From positions 1-62,597 of the forward strand of contig NZ_PRLC01000017.1 of the NCBI RefSeq assembly GCF_003287455.1: 62,597 nucleotides of DNA, in the 5' to 3' direction. The translations under genes were made by a program, and so were the position numbers. The stretch comes from Faecalibacterium hattorii (GTDB lineage: Bacteria; Bacillota; Clostridia; Oscillospirales; Ruminococcaceae). Positions within the stretch are counted from its first letter, which is position 1, and each line of letters begins with the position of its first letter. Shown here one piece after another: positions 11,389 to 34,292 of this stretch. Below the pieces are notes generated by a model, which worked only from the letters and a program-made list of their open reading frames with translations, was not told the DNA's origin and ran no database searches.

Positions 11389-11462
11389 AGTGCTTGCTCA
11401 GAAGTGACCGTGAGTCACTTTTCCGCACACCATTCCAATCCAACATCCAATGGAGGGTTTTC

Positions 11463-13562: not shown

Positions 13563-13567
13563 CTACC

Positions 13568-15478
13568 ATGAAAAAATCGCTTCGTATCGCCAGTGCGGCG
13601 CTGGCGCTGACTCTCGCCGCCGGTATGACGATGCCTGCCTTTGCGGCAAGTTCGTCTTCCTTTACCAAATCCGAAAATGTCTATGTTGTGATGAACGCCG
13701 ACGGCTCGGTCCAGAGCACCACCGTCAGCGAACACCTGTACAACGCCGGGGGGCTGTCCTCCGTCACCGATGTGTCCAGCCTGACCAACATCCAGAACAC
13801 CGAGAGCGACGCCGCCTTTACGCAGGACGGCGAGAAGCTGGTCTGGAACACCGACGATACCGATGTTTACTACAAGGGTGACACCGACCGGGCCCTGCCC
13901 ATCGGTGCCAAGGTGACCTACACGCTGGACGGCACCACCGACAGCCTTGAGAACCTGATCGGCAAGAGCGGCCACCTGAAGATCACCGTGGATCTGACCA
14001 ACTACGAGACCGGCACCGTGACCGTCAACGGCAAGGAGCGCACCATCGTGACCCCGCTGGTCACGGCGGTGGGCGTCATCTTCGGGGAAGACGCCTCCAA
14101 CCTGAACGCAGACCACGGCATCGTTGAGTCCGCCGCTAAGAGCAACGTGGCTGCCTTTGTCTGCCTCCCCGGCGTCAAGGATTCCCTGAGCGGTCTGCTG
14201 CCCGATGACCTGTCCGCTGTGGAAGATTATTTGCAGGACAGCGTGACCGTGGAAGCCGATGTGGAGAACCTCGCCGCGCCCCAGATCATGCTGGCCGCTG
14301 CCACCAGCCCCGATGCCCTTGGCACCGACAATGTCTTCGACCTTGACAGCATCAACGAGCTGACCGACGGCATCCAGCAGCTCAACGACGCCATGAGTCA
14401 GCTGATGGACGGTGCTTCTCAATTGGAGGACGGCGTGAGCCAACTGGCCGACGGTACGCTGGCCCTGCTGGACGGTGCTTCTCAGTTGAACACCGGTGCC
14501 GCTGCCCTGAATGACGGCCTTGGCCAACTGACCAACGGCCTCGATACCCTGACCTCCAACAACGACGCCCTGAACAGCGCCGCCCAGCAGGTCGCTGACG
14601 GCGTGCTGGCTTCGGCCAACAGCAGCCTGATGGAGGGCGGCCTCATCGATACCCCGATGACATGGGACAACTACCAGTCCGTCATCGACGAAGTGCTGAC
14701 CATGAACGCAAAGACGCTGGCCGCTGCCCGCAAGAAGATGGTTCGCACCATCTGGGAGCAGGAACCCAGCTTCAAGGACAGCCAGCTCAATCTGGCCCTC
14801 TACCTCTCCGCCACCAAGACCAACCACGACCTTGAGGCTGCTCTGCGCCTGATGCAGAAGTACGACCCCTCGATGATCTGCGGCCTGATCGACCTGCTGA
14901 CCAGCGCCGAGGCCAAGCAGACCGTGCAGGATGAGCTGAAGCTTCAGGCCGAGAACAGCGAGGATATCGCCAATGTCCGCGCTTTGAAGACCAGCCTTTC
15001 TCAGATCCAGCTCTTCGTTTCCAGCGTTGGCCAGTACACCGGCGGCGTGGCCGCTGCGGCGGACGGTGCCCACTCCGCTAAGGACGGCAGCGCCCAACTG
15101 GCCGATGGCACCAAGACCCTTTACGACGGTGTGACCACCCTGAACAATGGTGTGGGGCAGCTTGCCGACGGTTCCACTCGGTTGGCGGACGGCCTGAACC
15201 AGTTCAACGAGGAGGGCATCTCCAAGCTGACCGGCTCCCTCGACACCGACCAGATCCACGCCCTCAAGACCGTGCTGGACGCCATGACCGACCGTCTGGA
15301 GAGCTACACCAGCTTTGCCGGTGCCCCGGAGGAGGCTTCCTCCAACGTGAAGTTCGTCTATAAGACCGGCGAGACCGTGGCCGCTGCCACCAACACCGCC
15401 GAGACCGAGACCACCACCCAGTCCGGCAACTTCTTCACCCGCCTGTGGGAGCGGATCGTGAACCTGTTCAAGTTCTGA
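13568..15478 (+). CDS. Secreted coiled protein with YhgE/Pip-type heptad repeats
   Basis: 636 residues with a clear signal peptide (KKSLRIASAALALTLAAG, AFA cleavage near 27). Residues about 260-340 and 500-560 are runs of the LxDGxxQLxDG heptad repeat found in the external domain of YhgE/Pip and in MmpL-linked proteins. The C-terminus FTRLWERIVNLFKF is amphipathic and could contact the membrane. Its gene is almost contiguous with the MMPL exporter, so it is probably an extracytoplasmic partner of that exporter. No catalytic domain is visible. Exact function unknown. Confidence 0.8.
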   Translation: MKKSLRIASAALALTLAAGMTMPAFAASSSSFTKSENVYVVMNADGSVQSTTVSEHLYNAGGLSSVTDVSSLTNIQNTESDAAFTQDGEKLVWNTDDTDVYYKGDTDRALPIGAKVTYTLDGTTDSLENLIGKSGHLKITVDLTNYETGTVTVNGKERTIVTPLVTAVGVIFGEDASNLNADHGIVESAAKSNVAAFVCLPGVKDSLSGLLPDDLSAVEDYLQDSVTVEADVENLAAPQIMLAAATSPDALGTDNVFDLDSINELTDGIQQLNDAMSQLMDGASQLEDGVSQLADGTLALLDGASQLNTGAAALNDGLGQLTNGLDTLTSNNDALNSAAQQVADGVLASANSSLMEGGLIDTPMTWDNYQSVIDEVLTMNAKTLAAARKKMVRTIWEQEPSFKDSQLNLALYLSATKTNHDLEAALRLMQKYDPSMICGLIDLLTSAEAKQTVQDELKLQAENSEDIANVRALKTSLSQIQLFVSSVGQYTGGVAAAADGAHSAKDGSAQLADGTKTLYDGVTTLNNGVGQLADGSTRLADGLNQFNEEGISKLTGSLDTDQIHALKTVLDAMTDRLESYTSFAGAPEEASSNVKFVYKTGETVAAATNTAETETTTQSGNFFTRLWERIVNLFKF

Positions 15479-16779: not shown

Positions 16780-16808
16780 TTGACCTGCGGTACGATTCTG
16801 CTTATAAT
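16780..16808 (+). promoter_or_regulatory. Promoter of the Pel-type operon
   Basis: TTGACC (16780-16785) and TATAAT (16803-16808) with 17-base spacing, 75 bases before the first gene. The leader shows no c-di-GMP riboswitch consensus. Confidence 0.8.
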
Positions 16809-16882: not shown

Positions 16883-18661
16883 GTGGAGATTCTATTGACC
16901 GGGAACACCTGTTTTGTGACGAAGGCATGGGTCGAGATGGCGTTCCCTGAGGACCATGTGCTCATCACCTGTGGGCGGGGGCAGCCCCACCCGCCCAAGC
17001 TGCGGGCCATCACGCTGGACAACAAGGAGCGGATCGGGCAACTGGTGGACAGCTACGAATTTGACCGCATCGTCTACTTTTCGGAATACTTGACGCCCCA
17101 CAGCGAGCAGGAGGGCGAGCTGGATCGTTTGCGGCGGGTGCTGCAAGCCAACCGCGACCGGGAAAGCCAGTTGCTCTATCTGGCGGGGCCGGAGGCGGTG
17201 CTGACCCCGGCCATCGGCAAAACGGTGGTAGCACAGGCGGCGGAAGCACTCTGCCGCCACTACGCCGAAACGAGCAAGGTGCAGATCAAGGTGCTGCACC
17301 TGCCCTACTTATATGGCTGCGACGGCACCGGGGCCCCGGCGGGCATCGCCGGGCTGCTGACCCGGATGCGGGACGGTGAGCTGCACTTCGATGAACAGGC
17401 GCTGGCCCCGGTGTTCGCCCTCTGCATGGAGGATCTTTCCGAGCTGGTGCTGCGGGTGTTCGACAACTGGACGCCGGAGTGGGAGAGCTTCACCGCACCG
17501 GTGGTCTTTGCGCTGAACTACGAGCAACTGGGGGAGGCGTGGAAGGCGCTGCATCCGGGCCTGAAGATGACCTACGGCACCGACCTCATCCGCACCTACC
17601 CGCCCGACGACGGGGTGCTGCGCTGCCGTTACGGGTGGTTCCCCCGGTACTCGCTGGAGGAGGATCTGCCCCGGCTGTTCCGGACCGAGACCCACGCCCG
17701 CCACAGCCGGACATGGGGCCAGCGGCTCGGCGGTCTGTGGGAGCGGCACCGGCATCTGCTGGAAGCAGCCGAGATCGTGGCATCCTTCGGATTTACGGAA
17801 TTGCTGGTGCAGCTGACCGGCTCACAGGCGCAGTTCCGGGTGGTGGACTTCCGGCTGGCCTTCATCGTGCTGGCAGCCAATGTCTACGGGCTGAATGCCG
17901 GGGTGGCTGCGGCACTTCTGGCGTCGGCGTCGCTGGCGGTCGGCTACTGGGAGCAGGGGGCTTCGCCGCTGCTACTCTTCTACGAGCCTTCCAACTGGCT
18001 GGCTTTCCTCGTCTACTTTGTGGTGGGGGCGGTCTGCGGCTATGTGCAGCTGCGCAGCGCCGAAAATGTCCGCTTCGCCGAGGAGCAATGCCGTCTGCTG
18101 GAAGAGCGGCTGCGGTTCGTGCGGCAGCTCTATCAGGACGTCATGGAGGACAAGCGCTCCCTTCGGCGGCAGATCTTGGGCCGCCGGGACAGCTTCGGCA
18201 AGGTGTACGCCGTGACGCGGGCACTGAACGAGACACCGCCGGACAAGCTGCCCGCAAAGACCGTGGAGCTGCTGGAAGATGTGTTCCAAAACCGCAGCGC
18301 CGCATTCTATTTCGTGGACGCGGCGGGCCGCACCGCCAAGCGGGCCGCGTGCAGCGAAGGGGCCGAGGCTCCGCGTTTTTTGGAAGGCCCGGCCCTCGCC
18401 GCGCTGGTGCAGACGCTGGAACAGGAAGAGGTCTGGGTCAACCGGACCCTGACGCCGGGGCTGCCGATGTTCGGCGCGGCGGTGCGGGTGGACGGGAAGC
18501 TCCGGGCCCTTGTGCTGCTGTATGATGCGGGCGGGGAGCAGCTCTCGCTCCACTACCAGAACCTATTCCGCATCCTGTGCGGGCTGGTGGAGACCGCGAT
18601 GACACGGGCGGCTCAGCCGCTGCCCGAAAAGCGGCCCCGGCGGCAGGAGGTGCGGGCATGA
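16883..18661 (+). CDS. pelD: PelD-like protein: degenerate SDR + membrane helices + GAF
   Basis: 592 residues. Residues 1-290 resemble an NAD-dependent epimerase/SDR fold, but the glycine-rich loop reads LTGNTCFVTKAW and lacks GxxGxxG, so catalysis is doubtful. Four transmembrane helices follow (about 295-400), then a coiled coil (402-440) and a GAF domain (about 445-580). Helices plus GAF is the layout of PelD, the c-di-GMP receptor of Pel secretion. The C-terminal degenerate GGDEF domain of classical PelD is absent and no clear RxxD site is seen. First gene of the operon; TGA overlaps the next ATG. Assignment rests on architecture and on the pelE/A/F/G neighbours. Confidence 0.72.
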   Translation: MEILLTGNTCFVTKAWVEMAFPEDHVLITCGRGQPHPPKLRAITLDNKERIGQLVDSYEFDRIVYFSEYLTPHSEQEGELDRLRRVLQANRDRESQLLYLAGPEAVLTPAIGKTVVAQAAEALCRHYAETSKVQIKVLHLPYLYGCDGTGAPAGIAGLLTRMRDGELHFDEQALAPVFALCMEDLSELVLRVFDNWTPEWESFTAPVVFALNYEQLGEAWKALHPGLKMTYGTDLIRTYPPDDGVLRCRYGWFPRYSLEEDLPRLFRTETHARHSRTWGQRLGGLWERHRHLLEAAEIVASFGFTELLVQLTGSQAQFRVVDFRLAFIVLAANVYGLNAGVAAALLASASLAVGYWEQGASPLLLFYEPSNWLAFLVYFVVGAVCGYVQLRSAENVRFAEEQCRLLEERLRFVRQLYQDVMEDKRSLRRQILGRRDSFGKVYAVTRALNETPPDKLPAKTVELLEDVFQNRSAAFYFVDAAGRTAKRAACSEGAEAPRFLEGPALAALVQTLEQEEVWVNRTLTPGLPMFGAAVRVDGKLRALVLLYDAGGEQLSLHYQNLFRILCGLVETAMTRAAQPLPEKRPRRQEVRA

Positions 18662-19395
18662 GCCGGAGGGAGAAGACACCGTTCCGGATGGAACCCTTCC
18701 GGGTGGACGATGAACTGCATCGGAGCATCCGGGTGGAGAACCGGGAGGATGCGGCCTCGACCGTGCCGCTGGAAGAGGCGCTGCTGCTGGACTCTGCCGA
18801 GCAGCGGCGGAAGCTGATCCTCTCGGTCTTGACGGATGACCCGGTGCAGTATTACGACCTGTTGGAACAGGCCCGCCTCAACGACGACAGCGAGGTGGTC
18901 CACTACGCGGCCACCGCCATGGCCCAGATCTCGAAACAGGCGGATGCGGCGCTGCAGCGGCACGCGGCCCGGTTCGCCGCCGACCCGAAGGACCCGGCGG
19001 TGCTGGCGGAATACGCCGCCGCGCTGGAAGCCTCCCTTGCGCTGGGGCTGGCGCAGGGCCGGGCGGCACAGCTGCAGCGCCAGCAGCTCGAACGTCTGCT
19101 GAAGATGCAGCTGGCCGATCAGCCGAAGGAAGAACAGTACGGGCTGGGGTGCCGCTTGGCCAAGGTGCAGTTGGAACTGGCGGAGTACGCCGCCGCCGAG
19201 CAGACCTTGGCGGAACTGACCGCCCGCTGGCCGGTGCGGGAGACCCCGTGGCTGCTGCGGCTGCGCAGCGCCGCCGCCCGGAAGGACGGGGCCGAGCTGG
19301 CCCGCTGGCTGGCCGAGATGGAGCGCGCGCAGGTCTACCTGAGCGCCGCCGGGCGGCGGGAGGTGGATTTCTGGAAGGGAGGGGGACAGCCATGA
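18658..19395 (+). CDS. pelE: PelE-like helical repeat protein
   Basis: 245 residues, no signal peptide. All-helical, Ala/Leu/Gln-rich, with TPR-like helical hairpins in about 75-235 (VVHYAATAMAQISK, LAEYAAALEASLALGL, KVQLELAEYAAAEQTLAEL). PelE of Pel systems carries TPR repeats and works with PelD and PelG at the membrane. Here the usual N-terminal membrane helices are missing. Start at 18658 gives an ATGA overlap with pelD; the stop overlaps the next ATG in the same way. Called from position and fold, since sequence identity of such proteins is low. Confidence 0.6.
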   Translation: MSRREKTPFRMEPFRVDDELHRSIRVENREDAASTVPLEEALLLDSAEQRRKLILSVLTDDPVQYYDLLEQARLNDDSEVVHYAATAMAQISKQADAALQRHAARFAADPKDPAVLAEYAAALEASLALGLAQGRAAQLQRQQLERLLKMQLADQPKEEQYGLGCRLAKVQLELAEYAAAEQTLAELTARWPVRETPWLLRLRSAAARKDGAELARWLAEMERAQVYLSAAGRREVDFWKGGGQP

Positions 19396-21239
19396 GGCGG
19401 CTGCAAAGCTGGTTTTTGCGGTTCCGGTGGCAGAAGCTGCTGGTGGTCTGGCTCGTGTTCGGGCTGATGGCGGCGGCGTTATTTGCTGAGCGCAGCGGCG
19501 TGCAGTACACCGGCACCCATCTTCGGCTCAACCTGCTGGATACTGGGCTGACCAAGGAGGAGGCAGCCACCGGTGAGACGCCGACCTGCCTTCTCCTCTG
19601 CGACAGCACGGTGGACGGCGGGGACGAGGCGCGGGCGCAGTTCCAGCAGATGCTGCTGGACATGAAAGTGCCCACCGCCGTGGCCGACCTCGCCGAAGAG
19701 GAGGTGCTTCCGGCGTTTGAAAACTACCAGACCGTCGTGGTGCTGGCCGCAGACCTCGACACGCTGGGTCTGCGGCTGCTGGACCTGATGGACTGGGTGG
19801 AGCAGGGCGGAAACGTCCTCTTTGCTATGACGCTGGAAAAATCCGGCGCGTTCGACACCGTGGCGCAGAAACTGGGGGTGCTGTCCTCTTCATGGAGCAA
19901 CAAGGTGGCCGAGAGCATCGTTCCCGCCGCGGGCTTCATGCTGGGCGGCGGGCAGCGGTATGAACTCAGCGACCCATTCGAATCGGCGCTGGGGGTCCAG
20001 CTGCGGGACGATGCCACGGTCTATGCCGTCACCGGGGACGAGGGCGTGCCGCTGGTGTGGAGCACGGAACTGGGCAAGGGCCGGATCGTGGTGGACAACA
20101 TCGGCGTCTATGACAAGGTGATGCGGGGCTTTTACGCGGCCTCCTACAGTCTGCTGGGGAATGCGTGCGCCTACCCGGTGCTCAACAGCGCGGTCTTCTT
20201 TTTGGACGACTTCCCGTCCCCAGTGCCGGAGGGTGACGGCCAGTACATCCGCCAGCAATACGGGCTGAGCATCGCGGAATTTTACGCAAAAGTCTGGTGG
20301 CCGGATCTTGTCCGGCTGGCGGAACGGTACGGCATCCGGTACACCGGCGTCATGATCGAAAACTACGGCGACGACACCGAGGCCCCGCCCACCCGCCAGC
20401 GCAATATCCGGCAGTTCCAGTATTATGGCGGGCTGCTGCTGCGGCAGGGCGGGGAGCTGGGCTTCCACGGCTACAACCATCAGCCGCTGGTGCTGCCGGA
20501 GACGGACTACGGCGATCGGTACGATTATCGGCAGTGGCCCAGCGCCGACGCCATCGTGGCGGCCATGGACGAGCTGACGAGCTTCCAGAAAGCCGTGCTG
20601 CCCTATGCGTCCGGGTCGGTGTATGTGCCGCCGTCCAATATCCTGTCGGCGTCTGGCCGCGCGATCTTGGGCAGCCGGGTGCCGCAGGTGCGCACCATTG
20701 CCAGCTCCTATCTGGAGGACGGCACCGACCTGCCCTATGTGCAGGAGTTCGGCGTGGCCGAGGACGGTGTCGTGGAGGAGCCGCGCATCGTTTCGGGCAG
20801 CATGGTGGGGGATACCTACATGCGCACCGCCGCGCTGAGCGAGTTGAACCTCCACTTCGTCAGCACCCACTTCATGCACCCGGACGACCTGTTGGACGTG
20901 GATCGGGGCGCGGCGGAAGGCTGGGAAGTGTACAAGACCGGGCTGGAAGACTATCTGGAGTGGCTCACCGCCGCCGCGTCTGCCCTGCGGATGCAGACGG
21001 CGACCGAGTGCGCCGGGGCCATCCAGCGGTTTTCGGCCCTGACCGTCCGCTTGGAGAGTGGGGCCGATGCTTGGACGCTCCGTCTTGGCAACTTTGCGGA
21101 TGAGGCGTGGCTGCTGTTCCGGGCCAACGGCGGCACCCCCGGCAGCGTGTCCGGTGGGAAGCTGACCCACCTGACCGGAAATCTCTACCTGCTGCGGGCC
21201 GACGGGCCCATCGTGACTATGGAACGAAAGGAGAAATGA
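19392..21239 (+). CDS. pelA: PelA-like membrane-anchored deacetylase (DUF2194-type)
   Basis: 615 residues with one N-terminal anchor helix (about 14-34). Residues 50-240 form a glutamine-amidotransferase-like fold (LLLCDSTVDGG…). Residues about 270-540 resemble a polysaccharide deacetylase barrel: FFLDDFPSPVPEGD carries the metal/catalytic Asp pair, and GFHGYNHQPL carries the His pair; STHFMHPDD is a further candidate site. In Pel systems PelA partly deacetylates the GalNAc-rich polymer outside the membrane. The hydrolase half of Gram-negative PelA is absent. Upstream extension to 19149 is out; the ATG at 19392 overlaps pelE by 4 bases. Confidence 0.7.
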   Translation: MRRLQSWFLRFRWQKLLVVWLVFGLMAAALFAERSGVQYTGTHLRLNLLDTGLTKEEAATGETPTCLLLCDSTVDGGDEARAQFQQMLLDMKVPTAVADLAEEEVLPAFENYQTVVVLAADLDTLGLRLLDLMDWVEQGGNVLFAMTLEKSGAFDTVAQKLGVLSSSWSNKVAESIVPAAGFMLGGGQRYELSDPFESALGVQLRDDATVYAVTGDEGVPLVWSTELGKGRIVVDNIGVYDKVMRGFYAASYSLLGNACAYPVLNSAVFFLDDFPSPVPEGDGQYIRQQYGLSIAEFYAKVWWPDLVRLAERYGIRYTGVMIENYGDDTEAPPTRQRNIRQFQYYGGLLLRQGGELGFHGYNHQPLVLPETDYGDRYDYRQWPSADAIVAAMDELTSFQKAVLPYASGSVYVPPSNILSASGRAILGSRVPQVRTIASSYLEDGTDLPYVQEFGVAEDGVVEEPRIVSGSMVGDTYMRTAALSELNLHFVSTHFMHPDDLLDVDRGAAEGWEVYKTGLEDYLEWLTAAASALRMQTATECAGAIQRFSALTVRLESGADAWTLRLGNFADEAWLLFRANGGTPGSVSGGKLTHLTGNLYLLRADGPIVTMERKEK

Positions 21240-21242
21240 AGG

Positions 21243-22703
21243 ATGCGGGTCTGTCTGGTGCTGGAAGGGTCCTATCCTTATGTATATGGCGGCGTGTCCA
21301 CATGGATGCACGGCTGCATCCGCGCGATGCCGGAGCACGAATTCATCCTCTGGGTCATCGGGGCAAAAGCGGCCGACCGCGGGAAATTCGTCTACGAGCT
21401 GCCCGCCAATGTGGCCGAGGTGCACGAAGTCTTTCTGGACGACGCGCTGCGGCTGCGCGGCGGTGCCCCGCCGGTGCACTTCACGCCCGAAGAATGCGCG
21501 GCCCTGCGGGAGCTGGTGCGGCTGGGGGCGCCGGATTGGGAGGTTCTGTTCCGCCTGTTCCACGAAAAGCGGGCCCACCCGCTTGCCGTTTTGCAGAGCC
21601 GGGAGTTTATGGCGCTGTTCACCAAGCTGTGCGAGGAGGAGTACCCCTACACGGCCTTTGCGGATGCGTTCCACACCGTCCGCTCCATGCTGCTGCCGGT
21701 GCTCTGGCTGATGACGGGCGAGGTGCCCGAAGCGGACTGCTACCACGCCATCTGCACCGGGTACGGCGGGCTGCTGGCGTGCCTTGGCGGCAGCGTCCGC
21801 CACCGCCCCGTCCTGCTCACGGAACACGGCATCTACACCCGTGAGCGGGAGGAGGAAATCATCCGGGCCGAGTGGGTGGCCCCGGATTTCAAGGCCCGGT
21901 GGACGCGGTTCTTCTATATGCTGTCGGAACAAATTTACCGGCAGGCGGACCGGGTCACGAGCCTGTTCCCCCGCGCCCGCAGCATCCAGATCGGGATGGG
22001 GTGCGAACCGGGAAAGTGCATCGTGATCCCGAACGGGGTGGACTACGAGAAATTCTGCGCCATCCCGCCCAAAGCCGAAGACGGATGGGTGGACATCGGG
22101 GCCGTGGTGCGGCTGGCCCCCATCAAGGACATCAAGACCCTGCTCTACGCTTTTCTGGAACTGAGCGCCCGGTGCAAAAATGTCCGGCTGCACATTCTGG
22201 GCGGCGTGGACGACGAGGAATACGCGCGGGAGTGCTACGCGCTGGCCGAACAATTGGGGCTGGAGAACGTCCGCTTCACCGGGCGGGTGGACATTGCGGC
22301 CTACCTGCAAAAGCTGGACTTTACCATCCTGACCAGCATTTCGGAAGGGCAGCCCCTCTCGGTGCTGGAATCGCTGGCGGCGCGCCGCCCCTGCGTGACC
22401 ACCGATGTGGGCTGCTGCCGGGAGCTGCTGGAAGGAACCCCCGGCGACACCCTTGGTGCGGCAGGGTTCTGCGTGCCGCCCATGTACCGGCAGGGGCTGG
22501 CTGACGCCATGGAGAAGCTCTGCGTCAGCCGCCCGCTGCGGCAGCGGATGGGGGCCATCGGCCAGCAGCGGGTGGCGCAGAGCTACCGCCACGAGCAGAT
22601 GCTGGCGCGGTATCGGGCTCTCTACGCCGAAACGGCAGCCACGGCGCAGAAAGAGAAGGAAACGGAATCGGAGGAACTATGGCTGGAATTGGGTTCGAAC
22701 TGA
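21243..22703 (+). CDS. pelF: Pel glycosyltransferase PelF (GT4)
   Basis: 486 residues. The N-terminus VCLVLEGSYPYVYGGVSTW is characteristic of PelF, the cytoplasmic UDP-sugar-dependent glycosyltransferase that polymerises Pel. The C-terminal GT-B half has VRLAPIKDIKTLL, FTGRVD and the nucleotide-sugar motif SISEGQPLSVLE (near 362-373). RBS GAAAGGAG just before ATG. It overlaps pelG by 25 bases. This is the most confident Pel assignment in the cluster and anchors the rest. Confidence 0.93.
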   Translation: MRVCLVLEGSYPYVYGGVSTWMHGCIRAMPEHEFILWVIGAKAADRGKFVYELPANVAEVHEVFLDDALRLRGGAPPVHFTPEECAALRELVRLGAPDWEVLFRLFHEKRAHPLAVLQSREFMALFTKLCEEEYPYTAFADAFHTVRSMLLPVLWLMTGEVPEADCYHAICTGYGGLLACLGGSVRHRPVLLTEHGIYTREREEEIIRAEWVAPDFKARWTRFFYMLSEQIYRQADRVTSLFPRARSIQIGMGCEPGKCIVIPNGVDYEKFCAIPPKAEDGWVDIGAVVRLAPIKDIKTLLYAFLELSARCKNVRLHILGGVDDEEYARECYALAEQLGLENVRFTGRVDIAAYLQKLDFTILTSISEGQPLSVLESLAARRPCVTTDVGCCRELLEGTPGDTLGAAGFCVPPMYRQGLADAMEKLCVSRPLRQRMGAIGQQRVAQSYRHEQMLARYRALYAETAATAQKEKETESEELWLELGSN

Positions 22704-24094
22704 AAAAGCTGTTCCGGCGCAAGGGGATGCTGGCGGGGCTGCGGGCCTACGGCTACGCGGGCATCATCTGCACCGGGCCCATGCTGCTGGGGGTGCTGCT
22801 CCAAGGGGGGCTGCTGCTGCTCTGCGGCTGGGCGGGGGCACCCCGCGCTGCGCGGGATCTCCTCGTCTGTATGGTGACCTACACCCTCCTCGCCTCGCTG
22901 ACGGTGACGAGCTTTTTCTCGATGCCGGTCACCCGGTTCGTGGCCGACCAGCTGTACGAAGAGCGGGCCGAGCGGGTGCTGCCCTCCTTTGCGGGGGCGT
23001 GCGCGGTGCAGCTTGCGCTGGGCTGTGGGGGGTACGGGGCGTTTTTGCTGGCATCCGGCGCGACTTTTTGCCAAGGGCTGCTCTGTCTGTGGCTTTTTGC
23101 GGAGCTTGTCGTCTGCTGGACTGCCATGAGCTACCTGACCGCCCTGAAGGAGTACCGCGGCATCCTCATCGCCTTTGCGGCGGCGGTGGGCGCGGCCTTT
23201 GGGGCCGGGTGGGTGCTGGTGTTTTGGCTCGGCGTGCCGGTGGTGGAGGGCTTCCTCGCGGCCACGGCGCTGGGTTACGGCGTCATGCTGGGGCTGGATG
23301 TGCGGCTGCTGTGCCGCTTTTTCCCGGAGCGGGAGGGCAGCCCGTGGCGGTTTCTGCGCTGGGTAAAGCGCTACCGCACCTTGGCGCTGACCGGTCTTTT
23401 GCTGGATCTCGGCCTGTTTGCCCACCTTGTGATCGTCTGGCTGGGGCCCCTCGGCGTGCAGGTGAAGGGGCTGTTCTATGGTGCCCCTTATTACGATGTG
23501 CCCGCTCTGCTGGCCTTCCTGAGCATCCTCACCACTACGGTGAACTTCGTCGTCTCGGTGGAGGTGCAGTTCTACCCGCGCTACCGCACCTACTACAGCC
23601 TGTTCAACGACGGCGGCGTGGTGGGGGATATCAAGGCGGCGGAGGAAGAAATGCTGGCCGTGCTGAACCGGGAACTGTACTATACGGCCCTCAAGCAGCT
23701 CTTTACGACGGCGGCGGTCATCTCGCTGGAAACGCTGGTGCTGGGGTATCTGCCGCTGGGCTTCAATGACCTGATGCACGGCTGTCTCCGCACCCTCTGC
23801 GCGGGGTATGGGCTGTATGCGGTGGGAAACACCGTCCTGCTCATCCTGCTCTACTTTACCGATTATAAGGGCGCGCTGGGCGCGGCGGCAGCCTTTGCGG
23901 TGCTGGCCGGGGGCGGCACCGCGCTTTCGCTCCGGTTCGACCCGGCGTTTTACGGCTTTGGCTTTCTGGCCGGGGCGGCGGTGCTGTTTCTGGCCGCGCT
24001 GCTGCGGCTGGACTGGTTCACCCGGAACCTGCCCTACCGCATTCTGGGCCAGCAGCCCCTCGCGGCTGCGGAGGAAAAGGACAAGGAGGCTTGA
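22679..24094 (+). CDS. pelG: Pel flippase-like membrane protein PelG
   Basis: 471 residues with about 12 transmembrane helices. The N-terminus AGIGFELKKLF followed by the first helix (YGYAGIICTGPMLLGVLL) is the signature of PelG, a MATE/Wzx-like transporter that moves the Pel polymer across the membrane. SVEVQFYPRYRTYYSLFNDGG is another conserved cytoplasmic segment. It should form the inner-membrane complex with PelD and PelE. Confidence 0.93.
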   Translation: MAGIGFELKKLFRRKGMLAGLRAYGYAGIICTGPMLLGVLLQGGLLLLCGWAGAPRAARDLLVCMVTYTLLASLTVTSFFSMPVTRFVADQLYEERAERVLPSFAGACAVQLALGCGGYGAFLLASGATFCQGLLCLWLFAELVVCWTAMSYLTALKEYRGILIAFAAAVGAAFGAGWVLVFWLGVPVVEGFLAATALGYGVMLGLDVRLLCRFFPEREGSPWRFLRWVKRYRTLALTGLLLDLGLFAHLVIVWLGPLGVQVKGLFYGAPYYDVPALLAFLSILTTTVNFVVSVEVQFYPRYRTYYSLFNDGGVVGDIKAAEEEMLAVLNRELYYTALKQLFTTAAVISLETLVLGYLPLGFNDLMHGCLRTLCAGYGLYAVGNTVLLILLYFTDYKGALGAAAAFAVLAGGGTALSLRFDPAFYGFGFLAGAAVLFLAALLRLDWFTRNLPYRILGQQPLAAAEEKDKEA

Positions 24095-24097
24095 AAA

Positions 24098-25876
24098 ATG
24101 CAAGAACGGAAACTCCCCCGCCGCACGGTGCTGCTGCTGGGGGCCGCGCTGGCGGGGTGGTGCGCCGGGTGCAGCGTGCTCCCGGCGGAGGAAACGGCGT
24201 CTTCCAATGGATTTTCCACCGCCAAGGCAGAACCGGTGGAAAAAATGGCGGACACCGGCTTCCATCTGCGGGATAACGACGCGCTGTACACCGTCTACGA
24301 CGACAGCGGCGTGGTGACCATGTACCTCACCGTGACCCGCGGCACTGAGGCCGAAAACACCGACCACACATGGGAACAGATCAATTCCTACTCTGCTTAC
24401 GATTACGAGGCCATGCAGGTGCCCCGCTATCAGGTGGAGGGGCTGCTCCAAGTGGGGGATGAAAGCGGCCCGGCGGCTTCGGAGGTGGGTTACGGCGAAA
24501 CGGTCCCCAACGCCACGGTGCAGATCCGGGGCCAGACTTCCAGCCGGAATGCCCAGAAAAACTACAAGATCAAGCTGAAAAAGAATAAGGGGAGCTGGCG
24601 GGGCCAGCGGACCGTGGCGCTGAACAAGCATCAGGGCGACGGGCTGCGCTTCCGCAACAAGATGGCCTATGACCTCATCCGGGGCATCCCGCAGATGATG
24701 GGGCTGCGCACCCAGTTCGTCCACCTCTACGTCAAGGACAAGACCCAGACCGCTGGGGCCTCCTTCGTGGATCACGGGCTGTACACCCAAGTGGAGCAGC
24801 TCAACAAAACGACCCTCCGGGCGCACGGGCTGGATGAGAACGGCCAGCTTTATAAGGTGAACTTCTTTGAGTTCCTGCGCTATGGGGATGTGATCCGGCT
24901 CAAGACCGACCCGGCCTATGACAAAACGGCCTTTGAGCAGCTTCTGGAGATCAAGGGCAGCGACGACCACCAGAAGCTCATCGAGATGCTGGACGTGCTG
25001 AACGACGAGACCTCCCCGATGGAAGACCTCTTCGAAACGACCTTCGACACCGAGAACATCGCCTACTGGATGGCGTTCCAGATCCTGCTGGGCAACACCG
25101 ACACCCAGAGCCGGAATATGTACCTCTACAGCCCGCTGAACAGCAAGCGGTGGTACATCCTCGACTGGGACAACGACGCCATGCTCTCCCGCACCGAGTG
25201 GGAGTACCGCAATTACTCCGACAGCCTGAGCTGGGAGCGGGGCGTCAGCAATTACTGGGGCAATGTGCTCTTCCGCCGTTGTCTGCAGACAAAGCGCTTC
25301 CGGCAGGAGCTGGACGCCGCCATCGAAGAATTGTTCCGGTACTTCAGCGCGGACCGCATCGGGGAGATGACGGCGCGCTACCGCAGCCTTGTGGAGCCTT
25401 TCGTCTGGCAGCAGCCGGATCTTCTCCACGAGCCGCTGAGCCGGGAGGAATACGACAGGGTGGCGAACAGTCTGCACAAGGAGATCACCGAGAACCGGGA
25501 AGCGTACCGGGAAAGCCTGAAAAAGCCCATGCCTTTTTACATCGGGGTGCCGGAGCCGCAGGGCGACGAGCTGCGCCTGATGTGGGACGCCTCCTTCGAC
25601 TTTGCCGCCGAGGACATCACCTATACGGCGGAGCTGGCGAAGGACTACCGGTTCACCACGACCTTCTGGACCGAGGAGAACATCCGGCTGCCGGAAACGG
25701 TGGTCTATGCCCTCCCGGCGGGGCATTACTTCCTGCGGGTGCGGGCCGCAAACGAGTCCGGCTATACACAGGATGCTTTCGACTACTACGTGATGGAGAC
25801 CGGCAAAGCCTACGGCATGAAGAGCTTCTTCGTGGAGGCCGACGGCAGCGTGACGGAGGATTTTTACGATGAGTGA
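24098..25876 (+). CDS. CotH-kinase-family lipoprotein
   Basis: 592 residues. The N-terminus has a lipobox-like LAGWCAGC following a hydrophobic stretch, so it is probably lipid-anchored outside the membrane. The CotH domain spans about 125-440: RGQTSSRNAQKNYKIKL, LNKHQGDGLRFRNKMAYDL, GLYTQVEQ, LLGNTDTQSRNMYLY (GNxDxxxxN) and LDWDNDAML (catalytic Asp-rich motif). CotH proteins are atypical secreted kinases that phosphorylate protein substrates. A fibronectin-like C-terminus follows (530-592). It overlaps the VTC gene by 8 bases. The CotH-VTC-DUF4956 trio is recurrent in Firmicutes (recall). Confidence 0.85.
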   Translation: MQERKLPRRTVLLLGAALAGWCAGCSVLPAEETASSNGFSTAKAEPVEKMADTGFHLRDNDALYTVYDDSGVVTMYLTVTRGTEAENTDHTWEQINSYSAYDYEAMQVPRYQVEGLLQVGDESGPAASEVGYGETVPNATVQIRGQTSSRNAQKNYKIKLKKNKGSWRGQRTVALNKHQGDGLRFRNKMAYDLIRGIPQMMGLRTQFVHLYVKDKTQTAGASFVDHGLYTQVEQLNKTTLRAHGLDENGQLYKVNFFEFLRYGDVIRLKTDPAYDKTAFEQLLEIKGSDDHQKLIEMLDVLNDETSPMEDLFETTFDTENIAYWMAFQILLGNTDTQSRNMYLYSPLNSKRWYILDWDNDAMLSRTEWEYRNYSDSLSWERGVSNYWGNVLFRRCLQTKRFRQELDAAIEELFRYFSADRIGEMTARYRSLVEPFVWQQPDLLHEPLSREEYDRVANSLHKEITENREAYRESLKKPMPFYIGVPEPQGDELRLMWDASFDFAAEDITYTAELAKDYRFTTTFWTEENIRLPETVVYALPAGHYFLRVRAANESGYTQDAFDYYVMETGKAYGMKSFFVEADGSVTEDFYDE

Positions 25877-26639
25877 ACCGCACGCAGCCGCCGTTTTGCA
25901 GCGGGCCGCTCCGCCGAAAACACGCCGGAGCGAAGTGTACCGCCACGAGCTGAAGTACCGCATCTCGTATGCCGAAAAGGCGGCGCTGGAACTGCGGCTG
26001 GCCCCGCTGCTGCGCCGGGATGCCCACGCAAAGCCCGGCGGCTACCGGATCCGGAGCCTCTACTTCGACGACTGGTGGAACTCCGCCTATGGGGAGAAGG
26101 AGGCCGGGGTCTTCCTGCGCAAAAAGTACCGCATCCGCATCTACGACGGCAGCGATGCCGTCATTAAGCTGGAGCGAAAAAAGAAGGTGGGCAGCTACAT
26201 CTATAAGGAAGATGCCGCCCTCACCCGCGAGGAAACGGAGCGCATCCTGCGGGGGGACTACGGCGTTCTCCTCGCGTCGCCCCAGAACCTCTGCCGGGAG
26301 TTCTATGTGGAGTGCGTCTCCCATGTCCTGCGTCCCCGCGTCCTCGTGGATTACGAGCGGGAGGCGTGGGTGCTGGACGAGGGAACCGTGCGCATCACCT
26401 TTGACCAGAACGTCCGGGCCGCTGTGGGCGGCTGGAATCTGTTTGACCCAAAGCTCCCCACCCTGCCGGTGCTGGACCCCGGCACGCTGGTGCTGGAAGT
26501 AAAGTTCACCGAGTTTCTGCCGGAAGTTCTCCGCCAGCTCCTGCCGCCCAAGGCGCAGGAGTGGACGGCAGTGTCCAAATATGTCCTCTGTGCGGACAAA
26601 ACGGCCTACCGCCACGGGTTTTCCGGCTGGAACGACTAG
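25869..26639 (+). CDS. VTC-domain polyphosphate polymerase
   Basis: 256 residues, a single VTC catalytic domain of the triphosphate-tunnel fold. Basic and acidic tunnel residues are visible in order: Lys in HELKYRI, Arg in RIRSLYFDD, Arg pair in KKYRIRIYD, Lys in IKLERKKK, Arg in RPRVLVDYER, Glu/Lys in LEVKF, and Lys in SKY. The set appears complete, so the enzyme is probably active in making polyphosphate from NTP or acting on a related phosphate polymer. No membrane helices; the neighbouring DUF4956 protein may anchor it. Confidence 0.85.
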   Translation: MSEPHAAAVLQRAAPPKTRRSEVYRHELKYRISYAEKAALELRLAPLLRRDAHAKPGGYRIRSLYFDDWWNSAYGEKEAGVFLRKKYRIRIYDGSDAVIKLERKKKVGSYIYKEDAALTREETERILRGDYGVLLASPQNLCREFYVECVSHVLRPRVLVDYEREAWVLDEGTVRITFDQNVRAAVGGWNLFDPKLPTLPVLDPGTLVLEVKFTEFLPEVLRQLLPPKAQEWTAVSKYVLCADKTAYRHGFSGWND

Positions 26640-26658
26640 AAGGGAAAGGAACGCAGCT

Positions 26659-27324
26659 ATGAGTGTCAAGGACTTTATCAAGAAATCGGTGCTGGAAGGC
26701 TTCAGCCCGTACAATGTGCCCCAGATGGCGGGGGCCCTGCTGGCGGCGCTGGCCATGGGGGTGCTGATCTACTGGGTGTACCAGCGGTTCTACGCGGGGG
26801 TCATCTTTTCCCGCAGTTTCGCCATGACCTTGGTGGGCATGTCCGTCCTCACATGTATGGTCACGCTGGCCATCAGCTCCAATGTGGTCATCTCGCTGGG
26901 CATGGTGGGTGCACTGTCCATCGTGCGGTTCCGCACGGCGGTCAAGGACCCGCTGGACCTGCTCTATCTGTTCTGGTCCATCACGGCGGGCATCACCACC
27001 GGCGCGGGGATGTACCTGCTGGCCGTGGCGGCGTCGGCGGTGATGATCGGGGTGGTGGTCTTCCTCTCCCGCTGGCAGACGGCGGGCCGCAGCTATGTGG
27101 CGGTGCTCCACTATCAGGGCGAAAAGCCCGGCGACGAGATCGTCCGGGCGCTGGGGCGGAACAAGTTCGCCGTCAAATCGAAGACCCTCCGGGCCGAGGG
27201 CACCGAGCTGGCCGTGGAGGTCTGCTGCCGGGACAACGCCAGTGAGGTCACCGACCGGCTGCGCAGCATTGAGGGCGTGGAGGACGTGACCATGATCCAG
27301 TACAATGGCGAGTACCATGGCTGA
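26659..27324 (+). CDS. DUF4956 membrane protein
   Basis: 221 residues with four hydrophobic segments (about 24-43, 48-70, 95-112, 115-137) and a cytoplasmic C-terminal ferredoxin-like domain (145-221). The segment SLGMVGALSIVRFRTAVKDP is the hallmark of DUF4956. The family is usually next to VTC genes and may form the membrane channel or anchor for polyphosphate polymerase (inference). ATG 26659 follows AAAGGAACG; in-frame extension to 26581 lies inside the previous gene. Confidence 0.88.
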   Translation: MSVKDFIKKSVLEGFSPYNVPQMAGALLAALAMGVLIYWVYQRFYAGVIFSRSFAMTLVGMSVLTCMVTLAISSNVVISLGMVGALSIVRFRTAVKDPLDLLYLFWSITAGITTGAGMYLLAVAASAVMIGVVVFLSRWQTAGRSYVAVLHYQGEKPGDEIVRALGRNKFAVKSKTLRAEGTELAVEVCCRDNASEVTDRLRSIEGVEDVTMIQYNGEYHG

Positions 27325-28663
27325 GCGCCGGACCGCGGCGGCCGCAGCCTGTCTGCTGCTGGCGGGGTGTCTGCTCTGGGCCGGGCGGAAGCACACGGCG
27401 GTGTACCAGCCGGACGAAACGGCCTTCCCCAATGCGCAGATCGGCTATGCGCCCGGTGTGCTGGATACAGGCCCGGACGAGCCGGCTGTGACCCTGCGCT
27501 ACCTCGGCCTGACGTGGCGGGAGCTGGAGCCGGAAGAGGGCGTCTATGCGTGGGAGGCCATCCAGCAGACCTGCCACCTCGATGCCCTGCGGCAGCAAGG
27601 GGTGCATCTGGTCCTCCGCATTCTCTGCGACGAGCCGGGGGCGGAAGCCCACCTCGACATCCCGGATTGGCTCTACGAAAAAACCGGGAACGGCAGCTGG
27701 TACGATCTCTCCTACGGCAAAGGCTACTCGCCCGATTACGCCGACCCGGCCTTCTTTGCGGCCCACGCGGCGCTGCTGCGGGCGGTGGGGGAGTGGTTCG
27801 GGGCCGATGGCTTTGTCAGCTATGTGGAGCTGGGCAGCCTCGGCCACTGGGGCGAGTGGCACGTAAAGTCCGGCGAGGGGCTGGTGCCCCTGCCGGAGGA
27901 AGCGGTCCGTGACCGGTATATGGCCCTGTATCGGGAAGCCTTCCCGGCGGCAAAGCTGCTGGTGCGCCGCCCCTTCCGCGGGGCGGCGGGGCAGGGCTTC
28001 GGCCTGTACAACGACATGACCGGCCACGCCGGGGACACCGCCGAGTGGCTGGGCTGGATCGAAAACGGCGGCTGGTATGAGGGCGACCCGGCGGGCCTTT
28101 CGCCCATGCCGGATGCGTGGCAGACCGCCCCCATCGGCGGGGAACTTACCAGCCGCATCTCCATGGAACAGCTTCTGGAGACCGGCCTTGACCAGACTCT
28201 TTCCCTCGTGAAAAGATCCCACATGAGCTTCCTCGGCCCCAAAACGGCGGATGCCGCTTACCGGACCGGGTACGACGCGGTGCTGTCGGCCCTCGGCTAC
28301 CGGCTGCGGGTGACGGAAGCGGCGTGGCGGCGGGTGCCGGGCGGCATGGAGCTGACCGTTACCCTTGCGAACGAGGGCAGCGCCCCCTTTTACTGGGACT
28401 GGCCGGTGAACCTCTACGCGGAAACGGCAGAGGGCACCACGCTGGAAAAGGTTCCGCTGGGCATCTCGCTGCCGGAACTGCTGCCGGGACAGACCCGGAC
28501 GGCAAAGGCCAAACTCACCGCCCTGCCCGCACCCTTCTGGGAAGAGCGGGACCGGCGGGTGACCATGGGCATCGTGGACCCCATGACGGGCCGGGATGCC
28601 GTCCGCTTCGCGATGCAGACGGCGCAGGAAAACGGCCGCGCTGTCCTCTTTGCGGGGGTCTGA
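27317..28663 (+). CDS. DUF4832 glycoside-hydrolase-like exported protein
   Basis: 448 residues. The N-terminus has a short hydrophobic stretch with LLLAGCLLWAG, which may be a lipobox or signal anchor. The barrel region has VHLVLRILCDEPG and the conserved VELGSLGHWGEWH motif of DUF4832/DUF4874 proteins, which resemble clan GH-A glycosidases; the Glu in GEWH is the candidate acid/base. The C-terminal 110 residues form a beta domain. As last gene of the Pel-type operon it could trim or bind the polymer. Start is uncertain: ATG 27305 is in frame but neither site has a good RBS. Confidence 0.72.
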   Translation: MAERRTAAAAACLLLAGCLLWAGRKHTAVYQPDETAFPNAQIGYAPGVLDTGPDEPAVTLRYLGLTWRELEPEEGVYAWEAIQQTCHLDALRQQGVHLVLRILCDEPGAEAHLDIPDWLYEKTGNGSWYDLSYGKGYSPDYADPAFFAAHAALLRAVGEWFGADGFVSYVELGSLGHWGEWHVKSGEGLVPLPEEAVRDRYMALYREAFPAAKLLVRRPFRGAAGQGFGLYNDMTGHAGDTAEWLGWIENGGWYEGDPAGLSPMPDAWQTAPIGGELTSRISMEQLLETGLDQTLSLVKRSHMSFLGPKTADAAYRTGYDAVLSALGYRLRVTEAAWRRVPGGMELTVTLANEGSAPFYWDWPVNLYAETAEGTTLEKVPLGISLPELLPGQTRTAKAKLTALPAPFWEERDRRVTMGIVDPMTGRDAVRFAMQTAQENGRAVLFAGV

Positions 28664-28667
28664 ACAC

Positions 28668-28708
28668 AAAAAAGCCTGAGACTTGTGAGGCAGGTCTCAG
28701 GCTTTTTT
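28668..28708. terminator. Bidirectional terminator between the Pel operon and serA
   Basis: AAAAAA-GCCTGAGAC … GTCTCAGGC-TTTTTT, a 9-base perfect stem with T-runs both ways; it serves two convergent operons. Confidence 0.95.
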
Positions 28709-33134: not shown

Positions 33135-33188
33135 AAAACAGCATATACGTGCCTTGATTACAGAAATCCAAAGGTGAAATGTCTTACA

Positions 33189-34292
33189 ATGAACGGTTAT
33201 TTTTATGTATTGACGGCCATTGACCTTTTTGTGCTGAGCTTCATGTGCATCCTCACAAAGTTCAGCGAGTCCCTGAACAAGAAGCAGAAACGGGGATTTT
33301 TTCTGGCCTTTGCGCTGATCGCGGGGATCTCGGTGCTGGAGGTGGTGACGCTGGCGGTGGATGGCGCACCGGCGGGCTACCGTTGGCTGAACATCCTGTC
33401 CAACTATCTGGGGTTCGGCCTCTCCCCAGCGGTGTCCCTCTGCCTAGTGTACGTCATGGACCGAAAAAAGATGGTGAACTTCTGGTTCCGGGCGGCCGTG
33501 TGCTGCGAGGGGGGCTACCTGCTGTTCCTTGCCCTGTCCATCCCTGCCGGGCTGGTGTTCTCCGTTAGCGAAGACAACGTCTATTCCCGCGGGCCTTGCT
33601 TTTGCATTTACATCCTGATGTACCTTGCGGCCATCGTGTACCTTTCGGCGTCCACCATCGTCACGGCGCGGGAGTTTCAGAACCGCAGCCGGGCGCTGAT
33701 CTACCCCCTGATGCTCTTTCTGACCATCGAGACCATCATTCAGGTGGCCTTGCCGAGCCTCCACGTTACATGGCTGTGCGTTACCCTGCTGTCGGTGTTG
33801 TACTTTATTTATTGCAGTGAGATGTGGAACCAGCTGGACGCCCTCACCGGGCTGCTGAACCAGAACAGCTACCTGAACCGCACCGCAGAGATGCGCCGCA
33901 GCGGCGGGGTGCTGGTGGTGTTCGATGTGGACGACTTCAAGCAGGTCAACGACCGCTACGGCCACTTACAGGGGGACGTCTGCCTAGCCGAGATCGCCCG
34001 CTGCATCAAAAAAGCCTATGCCCACTGCGGCTACTGTTACCGCATCGGCGGCGACGAGTTCTGTGTGCTGCTGAAAAACGCAGACCGGGAGGCCCGGTGC
34101 GCGCAGGAATTTGAGCGTCAGCTGGCACTGCGGCGCGAGGTCGTGCATTGTCTGCCCAGAGTGTCCATGGGGTCGGCACCCATTTCGGGGGAGGATCTGC
34201 TGGCTGTGAAAGACCAAGCCGACCGGGAGATGTACCGCTGCAAAAAGGCCCGGAAGGCTGCGATGGAAAGGGCCGGAAGCGGAAGGCCCTGA
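33189..34292 (+). CDS. Membrane diguanylate cyclase (GGDEF)
   Basis: 367 residues. Seven hydrophobic segments fill residues 1-205, followed by a GGDEF domain (about 210-360): DALTGLLNQNSY, FDVDDFKQVNDRYGH (Mg/GTP site) and RIGGDEFCVLL (intact active site). The residues before GGDEF (AHCGYCY) lack the RxxD inhibitory site, so product inhibition is unlikely. It makes cyclic di-GMP, the usual ligand of PelD, and is the only c-di-GMP enzyme in the window. A GTG at 33174 is in frame but overlaps the RBS AAGGTGAA, so 33189 is preferred. Confidence 0.88.
   Translation: MNGYFYVLTAIDLFVLSFMCILTKFSESLNKKQKRGFFLAFALIAGISVLEVVTLAVDGAPAGYRWLNILSNYLGFGLSPAVSLCLVYVMDRKKMVNFWFRAAVCCEGGYLLFLALSIPAGLVFSVSEDNVYSRGPCFCIYILMYLAAIVYLSASTIVTAREFQNRSRALIYPLMLFLTIETIIQVALPSLHVTWLCVTLLSVLYFIYCSEMWNQLDALTGLLNQNSYLNRTAEMRRSGGVLVVFDVDDFKQVNDRYGHLQGDVCLAEIARCIKKAYAHCGYCYRIGGDEFCVLLKNADREARCAQEFERQLALRREVVHCLPRVSMGSAPISGEDLLAVKDQADREMYRCKKARKAAMERAGSGRP

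What the first reader, a model, noticed from the sequence alone, without database searches (positions are those of the whole stretch)
16883..28663. Hybrid operon: Gram-positive Pel exopolysaccharide genes plus CotH kinase, VTC polyphosphate polymerase, DUF4956 and DUF4832
Nine genes run without gaps, most overlapping by 4-25 bases, behind one promoter (16780-16808) and one terminator (28668-28708). PelF and PelG are clear. PelD-, PelE- and PelA-like proteins precede them. The second half brings a secreted atypical kinase, a VTC enzyme with an apparently complete active site, its usual membrane partner, and a GH-like protein. The gene fusion into one transcript suggests that polymer export is combined with a phosphate-based modification or anchoring: polyphosphate or a phosphorylated matrix protein joined to a Pel-like polymer. 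The parts are known; the combined system and its product are, to my knowledge, not described.
Basis: partly seen in the sequence, partly recalled or inferred. Interest (0 to 1): 0.82.

Follow-up and report, generated by a model that had tools for sequence, protein, structure and literature searches.

The report
Pel biofilm operon with phosphate module
A gut bacterium carries a known kind of sugar-polymer (Pel) operon joined to a three-gene phosphate module, and comparison of hundreds of genomes suggests that the module is a widespread unit in its own right that serves a kinase working outside the cell.

Summary
In detail: nine contiguous genes (16883-28663), a strong terminator, a plausible promoter. 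Its novelty claim is wrong: Pel operons carrying cotH, polyphosphate polymerase, DUF4956 and DUF4832 were described in 2020 (PMC7112168), and the four extra genes were deleted one by one in Streptococcus intermedius in 2025 (PMC12345266). Coordinate matches place the window in Faecalibacterium.

New here: (1) VTC-DUF4956-CotH also lives without Pel, in 38 of 75 VTC neighbourhoods of the window's phylum; the 2025 paper reports not finding it outside Pel (true here only for the exact order CotH-VTC-DUF4956). (2) CotH with an export signal goes with VTC: 49 of 50 genomes, 11 of 12 where unlinked. A prediction noted beforehand held in Actinomycetota: 21 of 22 CotH genomes carry VTC. Genomes with only signal-less CotH: 1 of 5. 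One ORF fuses VTC, a membrane helix and CotH. (3) Window PelD lacks the degenerate GGDEF domain found in 80 of 82 loci, and PelE its membrane anchor; the other lacking locus is a sister species, under purifying selection.

Likeliest: Pel plus a trans-membrane phosphate module. Polyphosphate as the kinase's outside phosphate source is possible but unproven; the S. intermedius VTC deletion without phenotype speaks against it.

The parts
16780..16808 (+). sigma-70-like promoter TTGACC-17-TATAAT
   Evidence: 11 of 12 consensus positions; a consensus match only
16883..18661 (+). PelD-like: degenerate SDR domain, TM region, GAF; the C-terminal degenerate GGDEF domain of relatives is missing
   Evidence: alignment A5; profile of the domain found in the PelD ORF of 80 of 82 loci, not in the window or sister genome G422; GGDEF fold of that domain
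18655..19395 (+). PelE-like protein without the N-terminal membrane helices of relatives
   Evidence: 82 of 86 PelE ORFs have a membrane helix; the window, G422 and two split or broken loci (L149, L196) do not; ATG 18655 preceded by AGGAGG
19389..21239 (+). PelA deacetylase-like protein (DUF2194)
   Evidence: PF09960 E 2.9e-168
21243..22703 (+). PelF glycosyltransferase
   Evidence: PF11997 E 1e-76 plus glycosyltransferase group 1
22679..24094 (+). PelG exporter
   Evidence: PF16933 E 2.3e-134
24098..25876 (+). CotH-family atypical kinase with an N-terminal export signal and a lipoprotein-like Cys
   Evidence: PF08757 E 1.1e-72; family profile matches CotH structure 5jd9 E 4.8e-49; D335 in 113 of 113 and D358 in 112 of 113 CotH rows
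25869..26639 (+). VTC polyphosphate-polymerase-like enzyme
   Evidence: PF09359 E 2.2e-32; family profile matches yeast Vtc4 3g3q E 1.6e-20; tunnel residues kept
26659..27324 (+). DUF4956 membrane protein: about 5 helices plus ACT/ferredoxin-like C-terminal domain
   Evidence: PF16316 E 1e-12; model pLDDT 76; ACT-type folds incl. MgtC C-domain 2lqj (E 4e-3 to 1e-2, weak)
27305..28663 (+). DUF4832 protein, glycoside-hydrolase-like
   Evidence: PF16116 E 1.3e-15; the S. intermedius counterpart is an active hydrolase (PMC12345266)
28667..28709 (+). rho-independent terminator
   Evidence: 20-pair stem, -32.9 kcal/mol, z -5.9

Best explanation
It is a Gram-positive Pel operon of Faecalibacterium with the published accessory cassette. 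PelF polymerises and PelG exports a GalNAc-rich polymer, PelA deacetylates it and the DUF4832 enzyme can trim it (inferred from relatives). The second half is a phosphate module spanning the membrane: VTC inside, DUF4956 in the membrane, CotH kinase outside. The three work as one unit that other bacteria use without Pel; here it tunes how much polymer is made or how cells stick together. Shown here by computation: the genes, intact VTC and CotH catalytic residues, predicted export of CotH, coupling of exported CotH to VTC in two phyla, and one VTC-TM-CotH fusion ORF. Inferred: that VTC makes polyphosphate, that DUF4956 passes phosphate or polyphosphate across, and that CotH uses it outside, where ATP is scarce. 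The c-di-GMP receptor domain of PelD has been lost in this lineage, so control through PelD should be absent although the genome has eight GGDEF domains.
For: Pel families and order. Cassette in print and genetically relevant. Twelve VTC tunnel positions the same in 140 of 140 rows, K237 in 139; Vtc4 is the best match among solved structures. Trio without Pel in 38 of 75 VTC neighbourhoods. Exported CotH with VTC: 49 of 50 genomes of the window's phylum, 11 of 12 with only unlinked copies (p 2e-8), against 1 of 5 genomes with only signal-less CotH. Prediction noted, then 21 of 22 CotH genomes with VTC in Actinomycetota, 2.4 expected. VTC-TM-CotH ORF beside DUF4956. 15 of 64 VTC genomes lack exported CotH, as expected of a supplier with several clients.
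Against: In S. intermedius no change is reported for the polymerase (VTC) deletion, while the CotH and presumed DUF4956 deletions changed Pel and aggregation, and in opposite directions for Pel (PMC12345266); the three did not behave as one pathway in that assay. The window genome also has a PPK1-type kinase. Two Pel loci have CotH without VTC next door (L193, L199; VTC lies elsewhere in those genomes), and G072 has exported CotH without VTC. Pel is often without the module: of 12 genomes with a clear PelG only 3 carry it next door, and PelG and VTC do not co-occur significantly (p 0.11). The fusion was seen once, in an unnamed draft genome. Genome counts are not corrected for relatedness.
Confidence: 0.6

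Rival explanations
1. CotH is a regulatory kinase: it phosphorylates outward-facing Pel machinery or a matrix protein and so sets Pel output. VTC and DUF4956 only manage phosphate inside the cell.
For: Regulation of Pel by CotH phosphorylation was proposed in PMC7112168. In S. intermedius the CotH deletion gave less Pel and less aggregation, the presumed DUF4956 deletion more Pel but less aggregation, the polymerase deletion no reported change.
Against: It does not explain why exported CotH, even when unlinked, is found with VTC in 11 of 12 genomes, why 21 of 22 Actinomycetota CotH genomes have VTC, or the VTC-TM-CotH fusion.
Confidence: 0.25
2. CotH phosphorylates the polysaccharide itself, changing its charge.
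For: Related secreted kinases of the Fam20 type act on sugars (recalled, no call). In one search CotH follows PelG directly in every trio-bearing Pel locus, and it is fused to PelG in one MAG ORF (L165).
Against: No phosphate on Pel is reported in the passages read; loss of CotH in S. intermedius lowers but does not abolish the antibody signal.
Confidence: 0.15
3. Polyphosphate is secreted as a polyanion that cross-links the polymer.
For: VTC active site intact; DUF4956, a membrane protein, is near VTC in 72 of 75 neighbourhoods.
Against: Polymerase deletion without reported effect on aggregation in S. intermedius; the polymer there may be neutral rather than cationic; the module also lives without Pel.
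Confidence: 0.1
4. The cassette is a passenger: useful on its own, kept beside Pel by shared transcription or transfer only.
For: The module is common without Pel and Pel is common without the module.
Against: The order CotH-VTC-DUF4956 is found in 68 of 71 Pel loci with VTC, the Pel-linked VTC are nearly one clade, and two cassette genes affect Pel output in S. intermedius.
Confidence: 0.1

Closest known systems
Gram-positive pelDEADAFG locus with cotH, PPP, DUF4956, DUF4832 (PMC7112168, S4 Fig group; text passages and legend read, figure not held)
   Same: same genes; cassette directly downstream of pelG; N-terminal degenerate SDR domain in PelD
   Different: here PelD lacks the degenerate GGDEF domain and PelE its membrane anchor; 'Faecalibacterium' does not occur in that paper's main text
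S. intermedius pel operon with SIR_1591-1594 (PMC12345266, passages read)
   Same: same gene content by description; PelD without GGDEF
   Different: the authors found no diguanylate cyclases in that group, while this genome has eight GGDEF domains; PelE anchor of S. intermedius not compared here
P. aeruginosa / B. cereus Pel
   Same: PelD, E, F, G and deacetylase core
   Different: no such cassette described; their PelD keeps the c-di-GMP-binding GGDEF domain (PMC7112168)
Yeast VTC complex (Vtc4, 3g3q)
   Same: tunnel-enzyme domain and its charged residues
   Different: the 256-residue protein is the VTC domain alone; DUF4956 is a separate partner
Spore coat kinase CotH (5jd9)
   Same: kinase family match and catalytic Asp pair
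   Different: exported, longer, with a C-terminal extension; the spore-type CotH fetched here have no export signal

Membership tests
Gram-positive Pel operon | PelF and PelG | tested here: met
   PF11997 and PF16933 far above cut-off
Gram-positive Pel operon | PelA deacetylase-like gene between pelE and pelF | tested here: met
   DUF2194 and order; catalytic residues not checked
Gram-positive Pel operon | PelD with TM region and GAF | tested here: met
   alignment to nine relatives; Pfam hits below cut-off
Gram-positive Pel operon | PelD degenerate GGDEF domain with RxxD | tested here: not met
   absent in window and G422, present in the PelD ORF of the other 80 of 82 loci; RxxD in 68 of 68 ORFs of 650 aa or more. 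Not required: streptococcal members lack it too (PMC7112168)
Gram-positive Pel operon | PelE with N-terminal membrane anchor | tested here: not met
   82 of 86 PelE ORFs have it, window and G422 do not. The rest of PelE matches
Gram-positive Pel operon | GalNAc-rich polymer | not testable with these tools
   needs lectin, antibody or chemistry
cotH-PPP-DUF4956-DUF4832 accessory cassette | four genes downstream of and contiguous with pelG | tested here: met
VTC polyphosphate polymerase | charged tunnel residues | tested here: met
   of 14 positions 12 invariant in 140 of 140 rows, K237 in 139, R62 varies outside Pel; their role in Vtc4 is recalled
VTC polyphosphate polymerase | makes polyphosphate | not testable with these tools
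   needs enzyme assay
CotH kinase | catalytic Asp pair | tested here: met
   D335 and D358; 23-residue spacing as in B. subtilis D228/D251 (recalled)
CotH kinase | kinase activity | not testable with these tools
   needs assay
DUF4832 hydrolase | family membership | tested here: met
   PF16116; activity not tested

The most novel reading that the evidence does not exclude
Bacteria energise kinases outside the cell with polyphosphate: a cytosolic VTC enzyme makes it, DUF4956 passes it through the membrane, and an exported CotH kinase uses it as phosphate donor in place of ATP. Pel operons have borrowed this unit. It would explain why exported CotH is almost never found without VTC, why signal-less spore CotH does not need it, and why one ORF joins VTC to CotH across a membrane helix.
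Probability: 0.2. Interest if true: 0.88.

Novelty: new variant of a known kind. Interest (0 to 1): 0.52.

Why it matters
The operon type is known, but what its phosphate genes do is open. Showing that VTC-DUF4956-CotH is a common unit without Pel, and that exported CotH goes with VTC in two phyla, moves the question from 'a Pel accessory' to 'how does a kinase work outside the cell', and makes it testable in harmless bacteria. The Faecalibacterium variant is also a natural experiment: Pel genes kept under selection after losing the c-di-GMP receptor domain and the PelE anchor together.

Tried and rejected
Chance or a one-strain fusion: rejected. Frameshifted or decaying PelD/PelE: rejected, a sister species shares the form and both genes are under purifying selection. 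Single-sequence searches of solved structures with VTC and CotH gave only noise; alignments gave Vtc4 and CotH. DUF4956 has no sequence match to a solved structure. Three paper searches showed in their listings no paper that proposes polyphosphate as donor for CotH; listings were capped and most subscription papers are not held. Of PMC7112168, PMC12345266 and PMC2879425 I read abstracts' starts or passages only; no whole text, no supplement.

Limits. The 80 named Pel loci are the nearest 80 of 377 by PelG, so they are biased to this operon type. One weak VTC hit in G386 (below cut-off) was not fetched. Some fetched stretches are cut by contig ends (L045, L049, L054, L062 are under 10 kb), so absence of Pel there rests on the genome-wide PelG search. 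Dropped before counts: G176 (below cut-off, in-frame stop) and a weak fragment in G245 from the CotH lists; L245 and L250 were not classed (fragment; cut at contig end); L252 (no signal) was left out of the genome lists, its genome has other, exported copies. Of 17 genomes with a PelG match, five were not counted as Pel genomes: four below cut-off and G281, over it only by summed pieces. The export threshold (hydrophobicity 1.6 in the first 60 aa) was set after seeing the values, which fall in two groups (up to 1.17; 1.63 and up). CotH genes beside VTC were taken as exported from the first-150-aa test (38 of 38 Pel-free; 66 of 75 Pel-linked). In Actinomycetota export was not classed. The 68-of-68 RxxD count used ORFs of 650 aa or more, which favours PelD with the domain; one search repeated the presence test without a length filter (three of its 82 loci are places fetched twice). 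The CotH tree is a quick one with long branches flagged.
Full report
What is there. The window carries nine same-strand genes from 16883 to 28663, with overlaps or gaps of a few to 25 bases. Pfam names PelA (DUF2194), PelF, PelG, CotH, VTC, DUF4956 and DUF4832 above cut-off. PelD and PelE have no hit above cut-off and rest on position and on alignment to relatives. A promoter-like site matching 11 of 12 ends 75 bases upstream, and a 20-pair hairpin with a T run follows the last gene. A dehydrogenase-like gene faces it on the other strand (name by my reading of the sequence).

Where it is. PelG at 71 percent identity sits in two named Faecalibacterium genomes. Among 150 relatives, 10 have a PelG match; 7 of these, the window genome included, belong to the genus, and at least 20 listed genomes of the genus have none. 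The nearest named relatives include Collinsella and Bifidobacterium, of another phylum, at 64-70 percent, which suggests transfer between gut bacteria (inference).

It is in print. A 2020 paper describes cotH, a polyphosphate polymerase, DUF4956 and DUF4832 contiguous with pelDEADAFG in streptococci and clostridia, with a variant in bifidobacteria (PMC7112168, passages). A 2025 paper deletes each gene in S. intermedius: loss of CotH lowers Pel and aggregation; loss of SIR_1592 (four TM segments plus ACT domain, which I take for DUF4956) raises Pel but lowers aggregation; no change is reported for the polymerase; the DUF4832 enzyme is an active hydrolase (PMC12345266, passages). In the 80 nearest named loci plus the window, 66 of 81 hold CotH, VTC and DUF4956 together with PelG; of the other 15, 6 are cut by contig ends and 9 are real differences (L168, L169, L183, L189, L191, L193, L199, L202, L207).

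The module without Pel. The 2025 paper says that its analyses fail to find the syntenic arrangement of the three genes outside Pel loci. I searched 398 genomes of the window's phylum: 64 have VTC. I fetched 75 neighbourhoods outside the window. DUF4956 is near VTC in 72 of 75; CotH is also near in 40, of which 38 have no PelG in the fetched stretch. Of these 38, 36 lie in genomes without any clear PelG; the exceptions are L053 (G136) and L067 (G105), whose PelG lies elsewhere, and G352 has one weak hit below cut-off. The order is VTC-DUF4956-CotH in 33 of 38, while Pel loci with VTC show CotH-VTC-DUF4956 in 68 of 71 (the other three lack one partner), so the exact order is Pel-only in this sample. 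In Actinomycetota, 15 of 20 stretches fetched around VTC or CotH hold all three, none with PelG by profile. A 2010 paper on Clostridium perfringens already lists VTC, a 222-residue membrane protein called tubulin/FtsZ, and CotH in a row (PMC2879425, passages); that the middle one is DUF4956 is my inference. Where CotH is absent, a secreted Cthe_2159-type protein (PF14262 for the representative) lies in the neighbourhood in 22 of 35 loci, against 1 of 38 with CotH; 10 of the 12 positions printed lie right after DUF4956. The VTC tree puts 47 of 48 Pel-linked rows in one clade with one Pel-free row (L039); the other, L034, lies apart with L053. On the quick CotH tree the Pel-type CotH, with L034 and L053, stand together.

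Coupling of exported CotH to VTC. In the same 398 genomes, 56 have CotH, 64 VTC, 50 both (9 expected, p 9e-44). I then fetched 31 CotH places not beside VTC and split them by export signal. Genomes with an exported CotH: 50, of which 49 have VTC; genomes whose exported CotH is only unlinked: 12, of which 11 have VTC (p 2e-8); genomes with only signal-less, spore-type CotH: 5, of which 1 has VTC. I noted a prediction and tested it in 296 Actinomycetota genomes: 22 have CotH, 32 VTC, 21 both, 2.4 expected; the exception, G710, has its CotH at a contig end. The control genomes agree: VTC rings in Bacteroides ihuae, Corynebacterium glutamicum and Methanosarcina acetivorans; CotH in the last two and in Bacillus subtilis, a spore former. 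The reverse does not hold: 15 of 64 VTC genomes lack exported CotH. One Actinomycetota ORF of 790 residues joins VTC, an arginine-rich stretch, one membrane helix and CotH, right beside DUF4956. By the positive-inside rule (recalled) VTC would be inside and CotH outside. Assembly error cannot be excluded, and a lipobox-like Cys after the helix could mean that the two parts are cut apart.

Active sites. Of 14 VTC positions checked, 12 are the same in 140 of 140 rows, K237 in 139, and R62 varies outside Pel. The profile matches Vtc4 best. CotH D335 is kept in 113 of 113 rows and D358 in 112 (one gap). DUF4956 models as a membrane bundle with an ACT-like end (pLDDT 76; weak fold matches).

The odd PelD and PelE. 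Window PelD has 592 residues; typical relatives have about 700 with an extra C-terminal domain. A profile of that domain finds it in the PelD ORF of 80 of 82 loci; only the window and the sister genome G422 lack it. RxxD is intact in 68 of 68 long PelD ORFs and none has GG[DE]EF. Its profile and its model (pLDDT 93) match GGDEF domains, so it is the degenerate c-di-GMP receptor known from P. aeruginosa and B. cereus PelD (PMC7112168). Window PelE lacks the first membrane helices, as does G422; 82 of 86 PelE ORFs have them, and the two other exceptions (L149, L196) lie in loci with split ORFs. G422 (PelG 81 percent) has the same compact gene junction, and dN/dS is 0.25 for PelD and 0.26 for PelE. 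The domain loss resembles that published for streptococci, but those are said to lack c-di-GMP enzymes, while this genome has eight GGDEF domains, one in the window.

How it likely works. The Pel half works as its relatives do. For the other half the evidence favours a unit reaching from cytosol to cell surface, with VTC-DUF4956 as supplier and CotH (or another secreted protein) as client. That the supplied item is polyphosphate is inference; a PPK1-type kinase is present as well, so VTC is not simply the cell's only polyphosphate maker. The missing VTC phenotype in S. intermedius is the strongest fact against; redundancy or assay conditions could explain it, but that is not shown.

Noticed in passing
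L265:3010-5382 (-), genome G847: Single ORF VTC - membrane helix - CotH beside DUF4956, the only such fusion seen.
   Followed up: partly
L165:10001-13210 (+): Single ORF PelG - lipobox-like helix - CotH in a Lachnospiraceae MAG; assembly error not excluded.
   Followed up: partly
L144:2918-5959 (+): PelD and PelE in one ORF in Collinsella aerofaciens, the same junction that is cut down in the window.
   Followed up: no
L154:3015-5804 and other PelD of 923-963 aa in ruminant MAGs: PelD with an N-terminal HD domain (Pfam seen for L154 only); several of these loci have two GGDEF genes after the cassette.
   Followed up: no
L079:6193-8622 (-) and other CotH-less loci: VTC-DUF4956 with a secreted Cthe_2159 carbohydrate-binding protein instead of CotH (22 of 35 CotH-less Pel-free loci; Pfam checked for the representative).
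   Followed up: partly
   Followed up: no
window 33174-34292: GGDEF gene (diguanylate-cyclase-like) 4.5 kb after the operon, while the operon's PelD has lost its GGDEF domain.
   Followed up: partly
window 11394-15478: MMPL-family transporter gene followed by a long secreted-looking protein with repeats, upstream of a dehydrogenase-like gene.
   Followed up: no
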